A stretch of 10,598 nucleotides of DNA from Sphingomonas sp. (GTDB taxonomy: Bacteria; Pseudomonadota; Alphaproteobacteria; Sphingomonadales; Sphingomonadaceae), in the NCBI GenBank assembly GCA_030146605.1, contig JASLBO010000424.1:1-10598 (forward strand), read 5' to 3'. The stretch's first letter is position 1. Every line of letters begins with the position of its first letter. Both the position numbers and the translations under genes were made by a program. The notes below the pieces were generated by a model, which saw only the letters and a program-made list of their open reading frames with translations, had not been told where the DNA came from and searched no databases. Of the stretch, positions 2,203-9,449 are shown in pieces.

Positions 2203-3429
2203 TTAGCCCATTGCCGTCTGCCGTCCCTTGACCAGCGACAGGAACGTCCCGAGGGATATCAGCCAGCTTTGCTGCGCTGGACGATAAGTGAGGTGGAGCC
2301 GCGAGGGCAGAACCAGACGAAGCTGCCTCGCCTGCATCTCTCGCGTCTGGTTCTCGGAGATGCCGGGTTCGAGCGTGAGCAGATGCTTTTCGGAGATGCG
2401 GTCGGCTTCCGAGAGGATCTGACGCCACCGGTCCTTGGCGGTCGATTTGGCGCCGAGCATGGTCAGCCGTGAATCGGGAAAGGCCGGATCGCGATATTGC
2501 ATCGGGCCGGGAAAGAGGAAGTCGGGCTTGTTGCGGTTCTCGGTTGCGGCGCCGCGGCGATGCTGGATCCCGTGTGCCACGAATATCGCTTCCAGATGAT
2601 TCTCGAGCGCTTGTCCGGCGCGCGACTTGCGGCGATTCTGCACGCTGAGCGAGAAGGACAGGAAACCGTCCACATCCGCGCCGTCTGACGCCATGAACCC
2701 CGCGGCGATCCGCTCGGCGACGATCCGTCGTTCGAGCCGGCGGAATAATTGCTCTTCACGATCCATCCACTCGACCAGAACCCGATCCGGATCGTCCAGC
2801 GGAGAGATGTGCGACAGCGACGATCGCGCGAGTTCCGAGAATGTGCGCGTCGATGGCATTGTGAGGCCGAAGGGTTCGATGAGCGTGTCGAGCTGTCTCG
2901 CTGCCGGCTCGTCAGGGGCGATGCCGAGTTCGTCGAGGATATAGCGCGCGGCAAAGTCGAGCTCGGCGTCGTTCGGTCCCTCGATCGACTGGAAGGTGAA
3001 GCCGAACATCGGCTGATCATGCAAGCCGAACAGCCAGAGGAGCTGGTTCTGGATCGTGCTTTCCGCCGGGGTGATGACCGCAAGCAACGATCCGTCGCGT
3101 CTCAGTGCGATGAATAGCATGTCGTCCGCCCGCATCATCTCGGTGACCGCGTTGGTCGAGTAATAAAGGTGAAATTCGGGCGCGCGCGGCTTGCCTTTCC
3201 GCACGTTGGACCAGCTCATGAATCCGTCTTCAGCCAGCGCTTCCTGCTCGCCGGAGAGCCAGATGAAGCGCGTCGGGATGCGCCTGCGGTCCTCGAGGCC
3301 GAGCAATTGCCGTAGCGGCAGTGTCCCCTGAAACTCGTGCTGATTCGACTTCTCGGTGATCGTTTCGACAAGGGTGAGGCGCTTGGCCACGACTCCTGCG
3401 AAAAGGTCTGAGAGAAATCCACGCCGCAT
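2203..3429 (-). CDS. EcoRII-type restriction endonuclease (CCWGG)
   Basis: This 408-aa protein is close to the 404 aa of EcoRII, a type IIE enzyme that cuts before CCWGG and is stimulated by a second site. Residues 1 to about 180 should be the effector DNA-binding (B3-like) domain, including WSNVRKGKPRAPEFHLYYS at 73-91. The C-terminal half is the PD-(D/E)XK nuclease: KPDFLFPG (D303), Y312, then GAKSTAKDRWRQIL with K328 and K332, and E341. These sit at a constant +4 offset from the EcoRII residues D299, Y308, K324, K328 and E337 as I remember them, so the active site looks intact. I chose the ATG at 3429 because it overlaps the vsr stop (TGATG) and AGGGGA lies six bases upstream; an ATG at 3474 would intrude 46 nt into vsr. 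It is last in the dcm-vsr operon. Confidence 0.93.
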   Translation of the reverse strand: MRRGFLSDLFAGVVAKRLTLVETITEKSNQHEFQGTLPLRQLLGLEDRRRIPTRFIWLSGEQEALAEDGFMSWSNVRKGKPRAPEFHLYYSTNAVTEMMRADDMLFIALRRDGSLLAVITPAESTIQNQLLWLFGLHDQPMFGFTFQSIEGPNDAELDFAARYILDELGIAPDEPAARQLDTLIEPFGLTMPSTRTFSELARSSLSHISPLDDPDRVLVEWMDREEQLFRRLERRIVAERIAAGFMASDGADVDGFLSFSLSVQNRRKSRAGQALENHLEAIFVAHGIQHRRGAATENRNKPDFLFPGPMQYRDPAFPDSRLTMLGAKSTAKDRWRQILSEADRISEKHLLTLEPGISENQTREMQARQLRLVLPSRLHLTYRPAQQSWLISLGTFLSLVKGRQTAMG

Positions 3430-3881
3430 CAACTTCCCCTGATTTCTAGCCTCGGGATCTCCGATCTGATCCATTCTGCGCAGGAGGCCAGCACGTCTTC
3501 AATCGGCAATCGCGTCCGTCCCTTCAGCGCGCATTCCCAGATCACCGCATAGCGCCAGTCGGTCTTCGCGAGCGTCGCCTCGGCCTTCGCATCGAGCTCC
3601 TGGTTCCGCGCGATCTTCGTCCGCCAGAATTCCTCGCGCGTCTTGGGCCATTTGAATAAATGGCAGTCATGGCCGTGCCAGAAGCAGCCATGCGCGAAGA
3701 GGACCGCGCGATGGCGCGGCAGAATGATGTCCGGGGTTCCGGGAAGCGATTTGTCGTGCAGCCTGAAACGGAAGCCGCGGGCGTGCAATCCTTTGCGGAG
3801 CAGCAGTTCCGGATTGGTGTTCTTGCCCTTGATGCCCGCCATCATCCGGCTGCGGACCGCAGCCGAGACCACGTCAGCCAT
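3429..3881 (-). CDS. vsr: Very short patch repair endonuclease Vsr
   Basis: Vsr nicks DNA 5' of the T in T:G mismatches made when 5-methylcytosine in CCWGG deaminates, starting repair back to C:G. The 150-aa protein (E. coli Vsr is 156 aa) keeps the key residues at E. coli numbering as I recall it: E25 in NPELLLRK, catalytic D51 in GTPDI, H64 and H69 in FAHGCFWHGHDCH, and the zinc ligands C66, H71, C73 and C117. It should be active. Its ATG lies inside the dcm coding end (8-nt overlap), much as vsr overlaps dcm in E. coli, and its TGA overlaps the endonuclease ATG. No clear Shine-Dalgarno precedes it, so translation is probably coupled to dcm. The frame ends with a short variable tail. Confidence 0.96.
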   Translation of the reverse strand: MADVVSAAVRSRMMAGIKGKNTNPELLLRKGLHARGFRFRLHDKSLPGTPDIILPRHRAVLFAHGCFWHGHDCHLFKWPKTREEFWRTKIARNQELDAKAEATLAKTDWRYAVIWECALKGRTRLPIEDVLASCAEWIRSEIPRLEIRGS

Positions 3882-5115
3882 AAGCGACTGCCGGCTCCCG
3901 ATCGGGTCGCGAGACGGAGACGGGGGTCGCGTGCCCGGTAGTCGGTTGCGCCAGCGCGTCTGCCAGATAAGGCTTCATGGCCTGGGCGAGGAACTCGACC
4001 ACCGGCACGACCACGGCATTGCCGAACTGGCGATACGCCTGTGTGTCGGACACCGGGATGTGCCAGCGGCGGTCGCCGCGGTCGAAGCCCATCAGCCGGG
4101 CGCATTCGAGCGGGGTGAGGCGGCGCGGGCGCTTGCCGGGTTGCGCGATCAGGATCTCCGAGCCGTCCTTGTAATAGCGCGCGGAAAGGGTGCGGGCGAC
4201 GTCGTTCGGGCCGAACAGACTGTAGCCGAAGCCGTTGCCCTTCGACGCGTGCTTCGCCTTATATGCCTGGAGATAGTCCCAGAGGCGCGGGGTGAGCGTG
4301 TATTTGGGATCCACCTCGTCATGCGGCTGGAGGATGCTGCCGAGCTTCGGGCCGTCAGTCGGCAGTTCGAGCGCCTCGAGATCGAACGCGGTCTTTTCAC
4401 GGAAGCCCAGGATGAAGATCCGCTCGCGCTTCTGCGGCACCCAGGGCGCGGAGCTGATCACGCGCGTCTGGACATGATAGCCTAGTTCGTTCTCGAGCAC
4501 GTTGATGATCGTCGCGAAGGTGCGGCCCTTGTCGTGCCGTTCGAGATTTTTGACGTTTTCGAGCACGAAGGCCGCCGGGCGGTGATGCGCGATGATCTGC
4601 GCGGTATCGAAGAACAAGGTGCCCTGTGTGTCGCACAGGAAGCCATGTGGGCGGCCCAGCGCGTTCTTCTTCGAGACGCCCGCGATCGAGAAAGGCTGGC
4701 ACGGGAAGCCGCCGAGCAGCAAATCGTGCTCGGGAACGCGCTCAGGATCCTCGGCAAAGGGGCGGATATCCCCGGCGAGCGGATGATTGTCGCGGAAATT
4801 GCGCGAATAGGTCTCCTGCGCCTTGGCGTCCCATTCGGAAGTGAAAACGCAGTGACCGCCGATCGCCTGAAAGCCGATCCGGAGGCCCCCGATCCCCGCG
4901 AACAGATCGATGAAGCGGAAGGCCGCGTCGTTGGATGCGGCGGGGGTGAGTTTGGCGATCATCTCGAGCGTGCGATAGATCGGCGCCTTGGGCTCGATCT
5001 CGCCCCGCTCCCAGCGATATACCGCGCTGGCGGAATAGCCGAGCTCGCTGGCCAGCTCCTCGACGCTCATCCCGGTCCGCTGCCTGAGTTCGGAAAAGCT
5101 TAGCGCACCGTGCAT
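3874..5115 (-). CDS. dcm: DNA (cytosine-5) methyltransferase, Dcm/M.EcoRII type, with N-terminal HTH
   Basis: This 413-aa enzyme transfers methyl from S-adenosylmethionine to C5 of the inner C of CCWGG, protecting DNA from the neighbouring EcoRII-type nuclease. Visible motifs are I (FIDLFAGIGG, 68-77), IV with catalytic C139 (GGFPCQPFS), VI (ENV, 186-188), VIII (QKRERIF, 228-234), IX (RRLTPLECARLMGF, 331-344) and X (QFGNAVVVPVV, 363-373). The recognition region (about 250-325) carries LTPRLWDYL, KGNGFGY and RTLSARYYKDGSEILI, which resemble E. coli Dcm. Residues about 7-55 form an XRE-like helix-turn-helix, a part used for self-regulation in some relatives such as M.SsoII. I chose the ATG at 5115 because AGAGGT lies five bases upstream; a TTG six codons earlier overlaps that signal. 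It is the first gene of the operon. Confidence 0.95.
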   Translation of the reverse strand: MHGALSFSELRQRTGMSVEELASELGYSASAVYRWERGEIEPKAPIYRTLEMIAKLTPAASNDAAFRFIDLFAGIGGLRIGFQAIGGHCVFTSEWDAKAQETYSRNFRDNHPLAGDIRPFAEDPERVPEHDLLLGGFPCQPFSIAGVSKKNALGRPHGFLCDTQGTLFFDTAQIIAHHRPAAFVLENVKNLERHDKGRTFATIINVLENELGYHVQTRVISSAPWVPQKRERIFILGFREKTAFDLEALELPTDGPKLGSILQPHDEVDPKYTLTPRLWDYLQAYKAKHASKGNGFGYSLFGPNDVARTLSARYYKDGSEILIAQPGKRPRRLTPLECARLMGFDRGDRRWHIPVSDTQAYRQFGNAVVVPVVEFLAQAMKPYLADALAQPTTGHATPVSVSRPDREPAVAYG

Positions 5116-5126
5116 CGAACACCTCT

Positions 5127-5140
5127 GGGACAATTTCTGG
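5127..5140. promoter_or_regulatory. Possible operator half-site in front of dcm
   Basis: GGGACAA (5127-5133) is followed by TTTCTGG (5134-5140), about 12-25 bases before the dcm ATG. The GGACAA half matches one arm of the operator I remember for the HTH-bearing methylase M.SsoII (an inverted repeat of GGACAAATTGTCC type). The second arm here matches poorly. With an HTH domain on this Dcm, binding at this spot would repress the operon. This is inference from one half-site. Confidence 0.25.
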
Positions 5141-5232: not shown

Positions 5233-5769
5233 TCACCCCATCGCCGAGCGCAATTCCGCCATCCGCGCGTCGATCGGTTCGAGCCGCCGCTGGTCCTCGG
5301 GCGAGAAGAGCGGCAGCACGTCCATCCCCGGCTCCCAATAGGGCCGGGTGATCGCGCCGCGCTGCGCGACGAGCGCGATATATTCGCGGACCAGCGTTTC
5401 ATGCCCGTCGGGCGCCATGATGTTGGGGCGGAAGGTGGTGGGGTCGAACGGCGCGGCGGGATCGGGCAGGAACAGCACGCGCGCGGGTTCGCCGGGCTGG
5501 GGCGTGACGTCGAGCAGGTCCCCGTCCGGGCCGCGCCACACGGCGTGGTGCTCGGCCTCGAACCAGCGGCCCGGCCAGCGCCAGATCGCCCAGCCATAGA
5601 CCGCCTCGCCGCCGTTCGCCTGCGCATGCGTCTCCGAATTCTCGAAGCAATAAGCGGGTTTGGCGATCGCGGCGGGCTGGACGGGCACGTAGACGGGCGT
5701 TTCGGGCGAGATCGTCGCGCAAAAGGCGAGGGTGGCCGAATCGAGCTGTTCGGGAGGTCCGAGGATCAT
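5233..5769 (-). CDS. Protein of unknown function with conserved Cys-His-Asp pattern
   Basis: I do not recognise a named family for this 178-aa protein. Its centre looks conserved: CFENSETHAQANGG (C41), YGWAIW (58-63), FEAEHHAVW (H74, H75) and DLLDVTP (D87). A Cys, then a His, then an Asp within about 50 residues, on what look like beta strands, recalls cysteine peptidase/transglutaminase-like folds or a metal site. No signal peptide or membrane segment is visible, so it is probably cytoplasmic. It starts at the ATG 5769-5767, with only a weak AGG directly upstream. It diverges from the aminotransferase fusion gene across 132 bp, and lies 117 nt ahead of dcm on the same strand with a hairpin between. 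Nothing ties it firmly to either neighbour. Confidence 0.7.
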   Translation of the reverse strand: MILGPPEQLDSATLAFCATISPETPVYVPVQPAAIAKPAYCFENSETHAQANGGEAVYGWAIWRWPGRWFEAEHHAVWRGPDGDLLDVTPQPGEPARVLFLPDPAAPFDPTTFRPNIMAPDGHETLVREYIALVAQRGAITRPYWEPGMDVLPLFSPEDQRRLEPIDARMAELRSAMG

Positions 5770-5901: not shown

Positions 5902-8412
5902 ATGGATCGGCTGCCGCTGATCGCGCCGCGCCCGCCGAAGCTGAGCCTGATGGGCGAGGCGCTGGCCGGGATCGAGGCGCGGGGGGTCTATTCGAATGGC
6001 GGGCCGGTGGTGCGCGGCTTCGAGGCGGCGGCGACGGCGCAATTGTTCGCGGGCACGGGGGATTGCCTCGCGGTGGGCAATGCGACGCTGGGGCTGATGC
6101 TGGCGATCCGCCACGCCGCGGGGCCGCGCGCGGGCAAGGGGCAGTTCGCGCTGATCCCGGCCTTCACCTTCGCGGCGACGGCGCATGCGGCCGAATGGGC
6201 GGGGCTGGTGCCGCTGCTGTGCGACGTGGATCCGGAGGATTGGGCGGCGAGCGCCGCGGCCGAGGCGCAGGCGTTCGACAAATATGGCGACCGGATCGCG
6301 GTGGTGGTGCCCTATGCCACCTTCGGGGCGGGGATCGATCTGGCGCGCTATCGGGACTATGCCGCGCGGGGCGTGGGCGTGGTGATCGATGCGGCGGCTT
6401 CGCTGGGGGCGCTGGACAGCGACGGGCGGCAGTTCGGCGCGGGGGCGCCGTTCGCGATCGTCTATTCGATGCACGCGACCAAGGTGTTCGCGACCGCCGA
6501 GGGCGGGCTGGTCCATTCGGGCGATGCGGGGCTGATCGACACGCTGCGGCGGATGAGCAATTTCGGCTTTGCCGGGGGGCGATCGGCCGAGGGGCCGGGG
6601 TTCAATGCGAAGCTGCCCGAAGTGCTGGGGCTGGTGGCGCGGGCGAAGCTCGACGAGATCGAGGGGGTCGCGGCGCACCGGATGACGCTCGACGCGGTGT
6701 ATCGCAAGGCGCTGGGCGGGTTCGCGGCGGAAAAGGGGTTCGAGTTTCAGGAATTGCGCGGGTCGCGGCCGGCGCTGCAGTTCCAGTCGCTGCTGCTGCC
6801 GCGCGCCTTTGCCGGGCACAGGCAGGCGATCATCGAGACGCTAGCGGCGCAGGGGATCGGCGCGGCGTGCTATTTCAGCCCGCATCTCGGCGAGCAGCCC
6901 TGGTTCCGCGCGCACGGCGTGAGCGAGCCGCTGCCGGTGTGCGACGATATCGCGGCGCGGATATTGTCGCTGCCGGTGACCGACGGGATGACCGCGAGCG
7001 ATGTCGAGCGGGTGTGCGCGGCGCTGATGGAGGCGTGCGCGGAGTCGGGGCGCAAGGGGTTGCCCAGGGCCGAGCGGCGCGGGGGGCATGTTCATGCGGC
7101 GCTGATCGTCGGCGGCGGGCCGGCGGGGACGGCGTTGCTGACCGCGGCGAGCAAGAGCGATGCGCTGGTGCGGCTGGCCGAAGCGGGGCTGGCGGTGGTC
7201 GAGCGCGACGCAGTGCTCGGGCGGGGCGAGATCGGGAATTACGCGATCACTTCCGACAGCAGTGCCGAAACGTTCCTGACGGCGGTCAAGGGCAATGCGC
7301 ATGCCCGGATCGCGGCGCTGGAGGGGCATAGTTCGGGGCAGGAAGTCGCGATGCACGCGGGCAGGCTGGGCGTGCCGCTGGCGCGGACCTCGCCGTTCCT
7401 GGAGGCTACGGGGGCCGAGCTGGCGGCGATCGTCGCGGGGCACGGGGGGATCGTGGCGACGCGCAGCGACGTGGTCGAGGCGCGGCGGACGAGCGACGGC
7501 GTGTGGGCCGCGCGGGTGCGCAACCTCGTCACCGGCGAGGTCCGGGTGATGCGCGCCGCCACGCTGGTGATCGCGACCGGCGGGTACCAGACCCGCGCCA
7601 ACGTCTATGCCGTGCGGGTTGCGGGGGCCGAGCTCGGCGCGCTTGCCGGCGAGCGGCTGATGACGGGGGACGAATTCCTGCGGATCGGCGGGCTCGACGC
7701 ATTGCGCGCGCGGATCGCCGGGGTGCCGGCACCGCGGATCGCGATCGTCGGCGGATCGACCAGCGCGCTCGCGGCGGCGGCGTTGATCCTCAAGGCGGCG
7801 CCGGCATTGCCGCTGGGGGCGGGCGCGCTCGCGCTCTACCATCGCCGGCCGCTGCGGCCTTTCTATCCCTCGGCCGAAGCGGCGCACGCGGACGGGTTCA
7901 GCGATTTCGGGCCGCAGGACATCTGTCCGGTGAGCGGGTTTGTCTACCGGCTGGCGGGCTTCCGGCTCGAGGCGCGCGAACTGGTGCTGCGGATGCTCGG
8001 CGTCGGCGGGCGGGCGCCCGATCCGCGGATGGCGCTGCGGCAGATCGGCGTGTTCGAGGACGCGGCAATCCGGGCCGAGATCGAGAATGCCGATCTGGTG
8101 ATCGGCGCGCTCGGCTATCGCCCGCGCGCCCTGCCGCTGTTCGATATGGACGGGACCCGGATCGCGCTCGCCGCCGATGCGCCGGGGCGGCCGCGGCTGG
8201 TCGACCAGGCATGCCGGGTGATCGACATGGAAGGGCGGCCGGTGCCCGGGGTGTTCGGGATCGGGCTCGCATCGGGGCATGTCCCCGACGGGCGGCTCGG
8301 CGGCGAGGCGAGCTTCAGCGGCAAGGCCAACGGCCTGTGGCTGTGGCAGAACGACATCGGCCAGATGATCGTCGACCAATTGCTGGGTGAACAGGCGCAG
8401 GCAGTCGCATGA
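5902..8412 (+). CDS. Fusion of DegT/StrS-type aminotransferase and FAD-dependent monooxygenase-like oxidoreductase
   Basis: One open frame of 836 residues joins two enzymes. Residues 1 to about 385 are a sugar-type PLP aminotransferase: SNGGPVVRGFE near the start, FTFAATAHAAEWAGLVP, VVIDAAASLGA with the pyridine-binding D163, and YSMHATKVFATAEGG with Schiff-base K194. Such enzymes usually aminate nucleotide-linked ketosugars. From about 398 an FAD-binding fold follows: LIVGGGPAG (404-409), E434 ending the next strand, a second dinucleotide site IAIVGGSTSALAAAA (about 614-626), and a GALGYRP signature near 735-741. This two-nucleotide layout resembles N-hydroxylating monooxygenases (SidA/PvdA class). 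I chose the ATG at 5902 for the GGGGG six bases upstream; an in-frame ATG lies at 5896. The frame is also open upstream to 5401, but that part shows no domain. The stop overlaps the glycosyltransferase start. Substrate unknown. Confidence 0.85.
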   Translation: MDRLPLIAPRPPKLSLMGEALAGIEARGVYSNGGPVVRGFEAAATAQLFAGTGDCLAVGNATLGLMLAIRHAAGPRAGKGQFALIPAFTFAATAHAAEWAGLVPLLCDVDPEDWAASAAAEAQAFDKYGDRIAVVVPYATFGAGIDLARYRDYAARGVGVVIDAAASLGALDSDGRQFGAGAPFAIVYSMHATKVFATAEGGLVHSGDAGLIDTLRRMSNFGFAGGRSAEGPGFNAKLPEVLGLVARAKLDEIEGVAAHRMTLDAVYRKALGGFAAEKGFEFQELRGSRPALQFQSLLLPRAFAGHRQAIIETLAAQGIGAACYFSPHLGEQPWFRAHGVSEPLPVCDDIAARILSLPVTDGMTASDVERVCAALMEACAESGRKGLPRAERRGGHVHAALIVGGGPAGTALLTAASKSDALVRLAEAGLAVVERDAVLGRGEIGNYAITSDSSAETFLTAVKGNAHARIAALEGHSSGQEVAMHAGRLGVPLARTSPFLEATGAELAAIVAGHGGIVATRSDVVEARRTSDGVWAARVRNLVTGEVRVMRAATLVIATGGYQTRANVYAVRVAGAELGALAGERLMTGDEFLRIGGLDALRARIAGVPAPRIAIVGGSTSALAAAALILKAAPALPLGAGALALYHRRPLRPFYPSAEAAHADGFSDFGPQDICPVSGFVYRLAGFRLEARELVLRMLGVGGRAPDPRMALRQIGVFEDAAIRAEIENADLVIGALGYRPRALPLFDMDGTRIALAADAPGRPRLVDQACRVIDMEGRPVPGVFGIGLASGHVPDGRLGGEASFSGKANGLWLWQNDIGQMIVDQLLGEQAQAVA

Positions 8413-9449
8413 GCGTGCCTACGGTCTCGGTGATCATGGCGGTGTACGAAGGCGCGGCGTTGCTGCCCGAGACGCTGGCGAGCCTGCGCGCGCAGACGCT
8501 GCAGGACTGGGAGCTGATCGCGGTCGACGATTGCTCGAACGACGACAGCGTCGGGGTGCTCGAGCGCTTCGGCGATCCGCGGGTGCGGGTGATCCGCTCG
8601 GAGAGCAACGGCGGACCGGTGGTGGCGCGCAACCGCGCCTTTGCCGAGGTGCGCGGGCGCTATGTCGCGGGGCTGGACCAGGACGATATCAGCCTGCCCG
8701 GGCGCTTTGCCCGGCAGGTCGCGTGGCTCGATGCGCATCCGGACACCGCGCTGGTGAGCTGCGCGACCGATTTCCTGATCGAGGGCAGGCGGCAGCCCGG
8801 CCATTGGCCGCGGCCGCTGAGCCCGGTGCTGATCGACTGGCTGATGCTGGTGCAGAACCCGATCGCCTGGTCCTCGGTGATGTTCCGCGCCCATGCCGCG
8901 CGCCGGCTCGACCCGTTCGAGCGGCCGGCGATGCGCTATGTCGAGGATTTCGACCTATACCAGCGGCTGCGGCCGTTCGGGCGGATCGCGCAGATCGACG
9001 AAGTGCTGATGCTCTATCGCTGCCATGCCGGCGGGGCTTCGCAGATGTTCAACGCGACGATGCGGGCGCACGCCGAATTGCTGCTGCGCGAGCGGCACGC
9101 GGCATTGCTTGGCGATGCGGCGCCGGACATTGCCGGGCTGCTGGTCCGCCATGTGATGGCGCGCGAGCCGGTGTCCGACATCGAAACGCTGAACCGATTG
9201 TTCGAGGGCGTGGAGGTGCTGCGGACGGCGTTCGGCGGCGCGAACCCGCACGAGGATCTGGCCGCAGTCGATCGCGAGATCTCGCTCTTGTGGTGGCGGA
9301 TCTGCCGGGCGAGCGTGCGCTCGGGATCGCTGCTGCTGCACCGGACGCTGGGCAACCGGCCGCTGCCGCTGGGGCAGGCGGCGGACCTTGTCGCCAGCCA
9401 GATGATCGGGGGGATGCGCAAGGTGAAGCGGGGGCTGACAGGGCGGTGA
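8409..9449 (+). CDS. Family 2 glycosyltransferase
   Basis: This 346-aa protein has the GT-A fold of family 2. The N-terminus (VSVIMAVYEGAALLPETLASL) is followed by VDDCS with D40/D41 for nucleotide-sugar binding, NGGPVVARNRAF (67-78), GLDQDD (88-93) as the metal-binding DxD equivalent, and VEDFDLYQRL with the probable catalytic E179/D180. The C-terminal third (about 210-346) is helical and not conserved in a way I can name. There is no strong membrane segment, so it is probably a cytoplasmic or peripheral enzyme that transfers a sugar to a lipid carrier, polysaccharide or other acceptor. Its ATG overlaps the TGA of the fusion gene (ATGA), so the two are translationally coupled and probably act in one pathway. 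Donor and acceptor cannot be read from the sequence. Confidence 0.92.
   Translation: MSVPTVSVIMAVYEGAALLPETLASLRAQTLQDWELIAVDDCSNDDSVGVLERFGDPRVRVIRSESNGGPVVARNRAFAEVRGRYVAGLDQDDISLPGRFARQVAWLDAHPDTALVSCATDFLIEGRRQPGHWPRPLSPVLIDWLMLVQNPIAWSSVMFRAHAARRLDPFERPAMRYVEDFDLYQRLRPFGRIAQIDEVLMLYRCHAGGASQMFNATMRAHAELLLRERHAALLGDAAPDIAGLLVRHVMAREPVSDIETLNRLFEGVEVLRTAFGGANPHEDLAAVDREISLLWWRICRASVRSGSLLLHRTLGNRPLPLGQAADLVASQMIGGMRKVKRGLTGR

What the first reader, a model, noticed from the sequence alone, without database searches (positions are those of the whole stretch)
5902..8412. Aminotransferase fused to an FAD monooxygenase-like enzyme
One continuous 836-aa frame carries an intact DegT-type aminotransferase (K194) and an intact two-nucleotide flavoenzyme. 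I know of no such characterised fusion. It suggests channelling: install an amino group on a sugar or related ketone, then oxidise it, perhaps to a hydroxylamine or further oxidised nitrogen. With a coupled glycosyltransferase this could be an unusual surface sugar or small glycoside pathway.
Basis: partly seen in the sequence, partly recalled or inferred. Interest (0 to 1): 0.7.

Follow-up and report, generated by a model that had tools for sequence, protein, structure and literature searches.

The report
Fused aminotransferase and nitrogen-oxidising-type flavoenzyme
In Sphingomonas-type bacteria, an enzyme that probably puts an amino group on a sugar is fused to a flavin enzyme shaped like those that oxidise amino groups, nearly always next to a sugar-attaching gene, which suggests that the cells decorate surface sugars with an unusual oxidised nitrogen.

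Summary
The fusion is real. One intact frame (5902-8412, 836 aa) holds a DegT aminotransferase (AT) and a two-nucleotide flavoenzyme (FAD). In 80 fetched sphingomonad loci both halves share one frame in 79; the exception breaks inside the AT half. A GT2 glycosyltransferase is adjacent in 79 of 80. Of 23 sampled genomes with the FAD gene, 22 have an AT fused or adjacent: AT-FAD fusion (12), AT then FAD (5), FAD then AT (4), reversed FAD-AT fusion (1). An acidobacterial plasmid has the reversed fusion too. Most wider loci of split and reversed forms carry polysaccharide genes. Remote FAD relatives sit beside other PLP enzymes, including an FR-900098-like gene set and an NRPS/PKS cluster. The FAD domain folds most like N-hydroxylating and FMO-type monooxygenases but lacks their classical motifs. 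Best reading: the AT makes a nucleotide-linked amino sugar, the FAD domain oxidises its nitrogen to a hydroxylamine, and GT2 transfers it to a surface glycan. Partnership and fold are shown; chemistry and substrate are inferred.

The parts
5902..8412 (+). AT-FAD fusion gene, 836 aa
5902..7032 (+). DegT/DnrJ/EryC1/StrS aminotransferase domain (about residues 1-377)
   Evidence: PF01041 21-375; best PDB sequence match 3ju7, E 2.2e-60, then DesI 2po3, E 3.2e-39
6481..6483 (+). K194, presumed PLP Schiff-base lysine
   Evidence: K in 114 of 114 loci with an AT match
7033..7086 (+). variable linker (about residues 378-395)
   Evidence: pLDDT under 50 at 384-395 in the full-length model; variable columns in A1
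7087..8409 (+). FAD/NAD(P)-binding domain of class B monooxygenase-like fold (residues 396-836)
   Evidence: model pLDDT 93.8; Foldseek and VIA
7111..7128 (+). FAD-binding GGGPAG motif (residues 404-409)
   Evidence: invariant in 22 of 22 rows
7750..7767 (+). second nucleotide motif GGSTSA (residues 617-622, presumed NADPH)
   Evidence: a G-[AGSN]-S-[TH]-S-[AS] form in 64 of 67 rows of A3
7918..7926 (+). family signature D-I-C (D673, C675) of DICPVSGFVYRLAGFR
   Evidence: D and C invariant in A3 (67 rows) and in A4 (22 rows)
8409..9449 (+). GT2 glycosyltransferase, 346 aa; ATGA 4-base overlap with the fusion gene
   Evidence: PF00535 E 3.3e-30; adjacent in 79 of 80 loci; overlap read

Best explanation
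A two-step nucleotide-sugar modifying enzyme. The N-terminal PLP domain transaminates a nucleotide-linked 4-keto-6-deoxy sugar (dTDP-4-keto-6-deoxyglucose is the likeliest). The C-terminal FAD/NADPH domain N-hydroxylates the new amine through a flavin hydroperoxide, giving a hydroxylamino sugar, possibly oxidised further. The overlapping GT2 gene's product then transfers this sugar to a surface glycan or glycolipid. Fusion keeps the two steps together. Shown: the fusion, its conservation, the repeated AT-FAD partnership, the GT2 coupling, the polysaccharide context of most relatives looked at, and the monooxygenase-type fold. Inferred: N-hydroxylation, the sugar, channelling, the glycan target.
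For: Fusion continuous in 79 of 80 loci and GT2 adjacent in 79 of 80. AT fused or adjacent in 22 of 23 sampled genomes with the FAD gene. Fusion also in reversed order (L096; Granulicella L105), one clade apart in the FAD tree (99/91). The FAD family partners ATs on very long, separate branches; L099's AT is nearest the LegC-type model, while those of L103, L105 and the window are nearest DesI. Polysaccharide genes (Wzc/Wzz, GTs, flippases) in L095, L096, L103-L105, and by shared gene clusters in L100 and L101; GT4 and FkbM in L099. FAD model: 44 of the 50 Foldseek rows listed are N-hydroxylases, six different proteins with SidA chains most numerous; the other six rows are DiatB (3), NADH peroxidase (2) and YpdA (1). 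An AT relative on a Peribacillus plasmid (38% over 373 residues) sits by rfbA, rfbB and rfbD. Remote FAD relatives in Priestia and Erwinia sit beside an NTP-transferase + CobD-like PLP enzyme and an Antibiotic_NAT domain, with DXP reductoisomerase in Priestia, resembling the FR-900098 pathway, whose flavoenzyme FrbG N-hydroxylates a CMP-linked amine (passages of PMC7347517). Profile match of the two FAD groups: E 1.7e-54.
Against: The classical NMO motif (recalled) is in 0 of 67 A3 rows and the FMO and BVMO motifs in 0 of 67. The window's FAD domain does not match PF13434; 14 of 67 members match it at E up to 0.1. VIA ranks FMOs and the disulfide reductase YpdA above the NMOs, so the fold alone does not fix the reaction. 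In the Sphingomonas loci the neighbours beyond GT2 that I scanned have no link to glycans (8 proteins), so the glycan context there rests on GT2. In L097 (G339, split pair) the two neighbours scanned are a Clp protease and a GH32 hydrolase. The Shinella PLP partner is a Cys/Met-type enzyme, not a transaminase family by Pfam's best match. One of 23 sampled genomes (G680) has no AT near the FAD gene. The Peribacillus AT has no FAD gene among its annotated neighbours. RfbB occurs over cut-off in 25 of 25 genomes but also in 10 of 14 controls, so it does not single out the substrate.
Confidence: 0.55

Rival explanations
1. The FAD domain acts first: it oxidises a sugar hydroxyl to a ketone, which the AT then aminates, so the product is an ordinary amino sugar.
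For: Dehydrogenase-then-aminotransferase pairs are common in amino sugar pathways (recalled). Weak partial matches of the FAD profile to glycerol-3-phosphate dehydrogenase (E 1.1e-4), malate:quinone oxidoreductase (0.0014) and an L-amino acid oxidase (0.0027).
Against: A second nucleotide motif and a fold near FMO/NMO enzymes. In the FR-900098-like gene sets the PLP partner would already yield the amine (pathway from passages and recall).
Confidence: 0.15
2. Same order as the best explanation, but the flavoenzyme oxidises the nitrogen beyond hydroxylamine, to nitroso, oxime or nitro, giving a nitrosugar or a deaminated sugar.
For: Other flavin enzymes take amino sugars to nitroso sugars (nitrososynthases, recalled).
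Against: Those enzymes have an acyl-CoA dehydrogenase fold (recalled), unlike this model; the N-hydroxylases listed there stop at N-OH (recalled).
Confidence: 0.15
3. The FAD domain is an NAD(P)H-dependent reductase or redox partner, for example reducing an imine or a PMP-bound intermediate, not an oxygenase.
For: YpdA and thioredoxin reductase structures score in the same range as monooxygenases.
Against: K194 kept in 114 of 114 loci, unlike the recalled dehydrase subfamily that needs a reductase; CxxC anywhere in only 5 of 67 A3 rows.
Confidence: 0.1
4. Sequencing or assembly artefact joining two genes.
For: Split genes with ATGA or GTGA overlaps exist in G758 and G339, so a one-base shift could join them.
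Against: 79 of 80 loci keep one frame through both halves, and the one broken locus breaks inside the AT half.
Confidence: 0.01

Closest known systems
DesI-type dTDP-4-keto-6-deoxyglucose 4-aminotransferase (TIGR04427; PDB 2po3) and 3ju7
   Same: DegT fold, PLP lysine; best NCBIfam and PDB relatives
   Different: 165.4 bits against an equivalog cut-off of 650; fused to a flavoenzyme
N-hydroxylating flavin monooxygenases (SidA, PvdA, KtzI, putrescine N-hydroxylase, DfoA)
   Same: Most of the Foldseek rows listed for the FAD domain, E down to 2.9e-13
   Different: 10-19% identity in those alignments; classical motif absent; those act on free amino acids or diamines (recalled), not beside a sugar AT
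FrbG with FrbH in FR-900098 biosynthesis
   Same: FrbG N-hydroxylates a nucleotide (CMP)-linked amine and resembles group B FMOs (passages of PMC7347517); remote FAD relatives sit in FR-900098-like gene sets
   Different: No FrbG chain appeared in the PDB sequence searches with these relatives; its substrate is a phosphonate, not a sugar
CalS13 aminotransferase and CalE10 N-oxidase of calicheamicin
   Same: Same proposed logic: 4-amino sugar made, then N-hydroxylated (CalE10 seen only as a reference title; CalS13 as PDB 4zas; the rest recalled)
   Different: CalE10 is a P450 (recalled), a separate protein, and serves an antibiotic

Membership tests
DegT/DnrJ/EryC1/StrS aminotransferases (PF01041) | Score over Pfam cutoff | tested here: met
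   197.5 bits against 19.8
DegT/DnrJ/EryC1/StrS aminotransferases (PF01041) | PLP lysine and aspartate (transaminase rather than dehydrase form) | tested here: met
   K194 and D163 in 114 of 114 loci
DesI equivalog TIGR04427 | Score over equivalog cut-off | tested here: not met
   165.4 against 650 bits
N-hydroxylating monooxygenases (PF13434) | Pfam PF13434 match | tested here: not met
   Not among the matches of the window's domain at E 0.1; 14 of 67 members match at E up to 0.1. Remote relatives pass the cutoff of 21.3: Priestia 23.6, Shinella 26.2
N-hydroxylating monooxygenases (PF13434) | Dx3[LF]ATGYx4[HP] motif (recalled) | tested here: not met
   0 of 67 A3 rows; a loose D/E-x6-GY form in 65 of 67
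N-hydroxylating monooxygenases (PF13434) | Two-dinucleotide-binding-domain fold | tested here: met
Class B FMO/BVMO | FxGxxxHxxx[YF] or [FY]xGxxxHxxxW[PD] (recalled) | tested here: not met
   0 of 67 A3 rows
Low-Mr thioredoxin reductase / disulfide reductases | Redox CxxC | tested here: not met
   CxxC anywhere in 5 of 67 A3 rows, not conserved
FrbG-type nucleotide-linked amine N-hydroxylases | Sequence or structural match to FrbG | tested here: inconclusive
   No FrbG chain among the rows listed; FrbG sequence not at hand
Amino sugar N-oxidases | NADPH- and O2-dependent N-hydroxylation | not testable with these tools
   Needs enzyme assay

The most novel reading that the evidence does not exclude
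A new, widespread family of flavoenzymes that N-oxidise nucleotide-activated amino sugars, recruited repeatedly next to aminotransferases and fused to them in both orders, so that many environmental bacteria build hydroxylamino (or nitroso/nitro) sugars into surface polysaccharides, a class of glycan chemistry that my searches did not find described.
Probability: 0.4. Interest if true: 0.85.

Novelty: new variant of a known kind. Interest (0 to 1): 0.62.

Why it matters
If right, N-oxidised sugars, known to me only from a few antibiotics, would be a common part of bacterial surface glycans, and one self-contained fused enzyme would make them testable in vitro. Hydroxylamines are chemically reactive, so they could serve metal binding, cross-linking or phage avoidance (inference). 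It also gives a function hypothesis for a protein family whose listed members, where a source gives a name, are named only after the aminotransferase half.

Tried and rejected
Artefact or frameshift at the junction: rejected. Reductase for a PMP-dependent dehydrase: disfavoured because K194 is kept. A fixed Sphingomonas gene neighbourhood: only GT2 is constant by my rough gene calls. One search scanned 9 proteins: 8 from fusion-bearing loci (S15 peptidase, DEAD helicase, Mo-cofactor enzyme, LepA, outer-membrane efflux protein, NAD-binding protein, enoyl-CoA hydratase, 2Fe-2S protein) and one from L102 without a match. RfbB co-occurrence as a pointer to the sugar: uninformative. Literature: searches returned 0 papers; one search listed 14 of 16 papers, none on such a fusion by title or start of abstract; one search listed 1 paper; others (12 of 150 listed; 8 of 1,089 listed, the N-oxidised sugar terms absent from those 8) showed nothing on N-oxidised sugars in bacterial polysaccharides; some searches served FrbG/NMO background. 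Papers were seen only as listings or as passages; most subscription papers are not held. Viral contigs: 26 pattern matches, 0 relatives. FrbG not among the PDB rows listed.

The FR-900098 reading of the Priestia, Erwinia and Rahnella gene sets is itself inferred: no PEP mutase is among the annotated features shown, and I did not search for one beyond reading the ORFs of L108 7300-9990. The Rahnella genes were not scanned; their layout is read from the annotation. The comparison of A3 with A4 shares sequences and is not used; A2 against A5 and against A6 do not share any. The genome search scored only the top few candidates per genome, so some FAD genes may have been missed. The full-length model has pTM 0.52, so it says nothing about how the two halves face each other.

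In one search a strict motif scan saw 75 of 81 sequences (window and 80 loci) as one frame; L028, L041, L049, L050 and L056 were missed by that scan but have one stop-free match (motif variation presumed), and L020 is frame-broken at about residue 220.

Full report
What is there. The window's frame 5902-8412 encodes 836 aa. The first ~377 residues are a DegT aminotransferase whose best solved relatives by sequence are 3ju7, deposited as a putative PLP-dependent aminotransferase, and DesI. The NCBIfam ranking also puts DesI first, though far below its equivalog cut-off. Residues 396-836 carry, by motif, an FAD site and a second dinucleotide site. They had no useful single-sequence match in the PDB (one row, E 0.71). 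The next gene, a GT2 glycosyltransferase at 8409-9449, overlaps the stop by ATGA.

Is the fusion real. A database search found 825 proteins at E<=0.001; 119 of the 120 listed (the query included) are 809-853 aa. A scan of species genomes found 279 relatives, of which 80 loci were kept, mainly Sphingomonas with Novosphingobium, Stakelama, Hephaestia, Blastomonas and unnamed bins. In 79 of 80 one stop-free match runs through both halves; L020 is frame-broken inside the AT half. GT2 lies directly after the gene in 79 of 80 loci, the exception being L032; in L064 only the first 59 residues of GT2 are on the contig.

Where it came from. Samples drawn evenly from the class (6 of 385 genomes with a match), the phylum (11 of 398) and the family (13 of 298) of one such genome give 23 different genomes with the FAD gene. 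The gene is thus patchy. Around it: AT-FAD fusion in 12 (G940 read across a contig break), separate AT then FAD in 5, separate FAD then AT in 4, a reversed FAD-AT fusion in 1 (G050) and no AT in 1 (G680). In G758, a genome of the family sample, the two genes are split with an ATGA overlap; in G339 with GTGA. The Acidobacteriota plasmid pACIX904 carries a reversed fusion followed by a glycosyltransferase. In the FAD tree the reversed fusions form one clade (99/91) apart from the AT-FAD fusions, and the AT-FAD label needs two changes because G758 joins six fused rows; one fusion with one later split, or two fusions, both fit. The aminotransferases of G071/G208 and of G437/G441/G514/G709 are on very long branches, so different kinds of DegT enzyme have partnered the same FAD family. 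Some FAD-tree rows have long branches and their deep places are unsure, as the tool warned.

Context. I looked at wider stretches of 10 sampled genomes (L095-L104) and of the Granulicella plasmid (L105). Polysaccharide genes: Wzc-like kinase, GT2 and GT4, a MurJ-like flippase and a NusG-like factor (L103); a Wzc-like kinase (L104); the same gene clusters in L100 and L101; Wzz/GNVR, flippase, FkbM and GT4 (L095); GT4 and FkbM (L099, with the same two clusters in L098); GT2 and flippase (L096); Wzz, export protein and sugar transferase (L105). G680's FAD gene (L102) lies near GTs, a flippase and a nucleotide-sugar dehydratase-like protein. The exception is L097 (G339), whose two scanned neighbours are a Clp protease and a GH32 hydrolase. 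In the Sphingomonas loci only GT2 is constant and the other neighbours scanned have no link to glycans.

The remote relatives. Profiles of the Sphingomonas FAD domains match those of a group that includes Priestia, Photorhabdus, Pseudomonas and Erwinia proteins over 415 columns (E 1.7e-54). In Priestia, the gene stands near an NTP-transferase/CobD-like PLP enzyme, an Antibiotic_NAT protein and a DXP reductoisomerase. This resembles FR-900098 biosynthesis: FrbG N-hydroxylates a CMP-linked aminopropylphosphonate and uses the NADPH domain to recognise the CMP (passages of PMC7347517), and FrbH is a cytidylyltransferase (passages of PMC6697681). That FrbH also has a PLP domain, and that DXP reductoisomerase is the drug's target, I recall. 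In Erwinia and, by annotation, Rahnella similar sets occur. In Shinella the gene sits beside a Cys/Met-type PLP enzyme in an NRPS/PKS cluster. So this flavoenzyme family is repeatedly placed beside PLP enzymes, of which the DegT enzymes and, by analogy, the CobD-like ones would yield an amine.

Mechanism. The simplest reading: the AT makes a nucleotide-linked 4-amino-4,6-dideoxy sugar, the FAD domain N-hydroxylates it, GT2 transfers it. RfbB, the source of dTDP-4-keto-6-deoxyglucose, is over its cut-off in 25 of 25 genomes checked but also in 10 of 14 controls. A Peribacillus AT relative lies by rfbA, rfbB and rfbD, without an annotated FAD neighbour. The chemistry is inferred. The closest logic is calicheamicin's CalS13/CalE10 (recalled; CalE10 seen only as a reference title).

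Verdict. I rate it a new variant of a known kind: known domains, a recurrent pairing that I found undescribed in the searches named, and possibly new glycan chemistry.

Noticed in passing
window 2203-5133 (-): A likely restriction-modification set on the minus strand: EcoRII-C restriction protein (423 aa, PF09019), a 150-aa Vsr-like ORF (3429-3881, judged by eye only) and a C5 cytosine methylase with an N-terminal HTH (3874-5133).
   Followed up: partly
window 5233-5769 (-): A 178-aa ORF without Pfam or NCBIfam match. An ORF cluster of the same length and place stands upstream of the fusion in 7 loci by my rough gene calls (cluster 30); identity to the window's ORF was not tested.
   Followed up: no
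L106 9575-17679 (Priestia megaterium pBM700): An FR-900098-like gene set (ATP-grasp pair, FAD enzyme, Antibiotic_NAT, NTP-transferase/CobD-like PLP fusion, DXP reductoisomerase) near a lantibiotic cluster; possible DXR-inhibitor biosynthesis in a Gram-positive.
   Followed up: partly
L108 9980-20972 and L110 9980-20887: Nearly the same annotated gene layout on Erwinia rhapontici and Rahnella plasmids: FAD enzyme, NTP-transferase/PLP fusion (scanned in L108), CDP-alcohol phosphatidyltransferase, HAD, ATP-grasp, MFS; uncharacterised small-molecule cluster.
   Followed up: partly
L020 about 10660: Sphingomonas xinjiangensis copy is frame-broken inside the AT half (matches in two frames); error or pseudogene not decided.
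   Followed up: no
L099 7627-9117: A DegT aminotransferase with an N-terminal CBS domain extension, next to an FAD-family gene.
   Followed up: no
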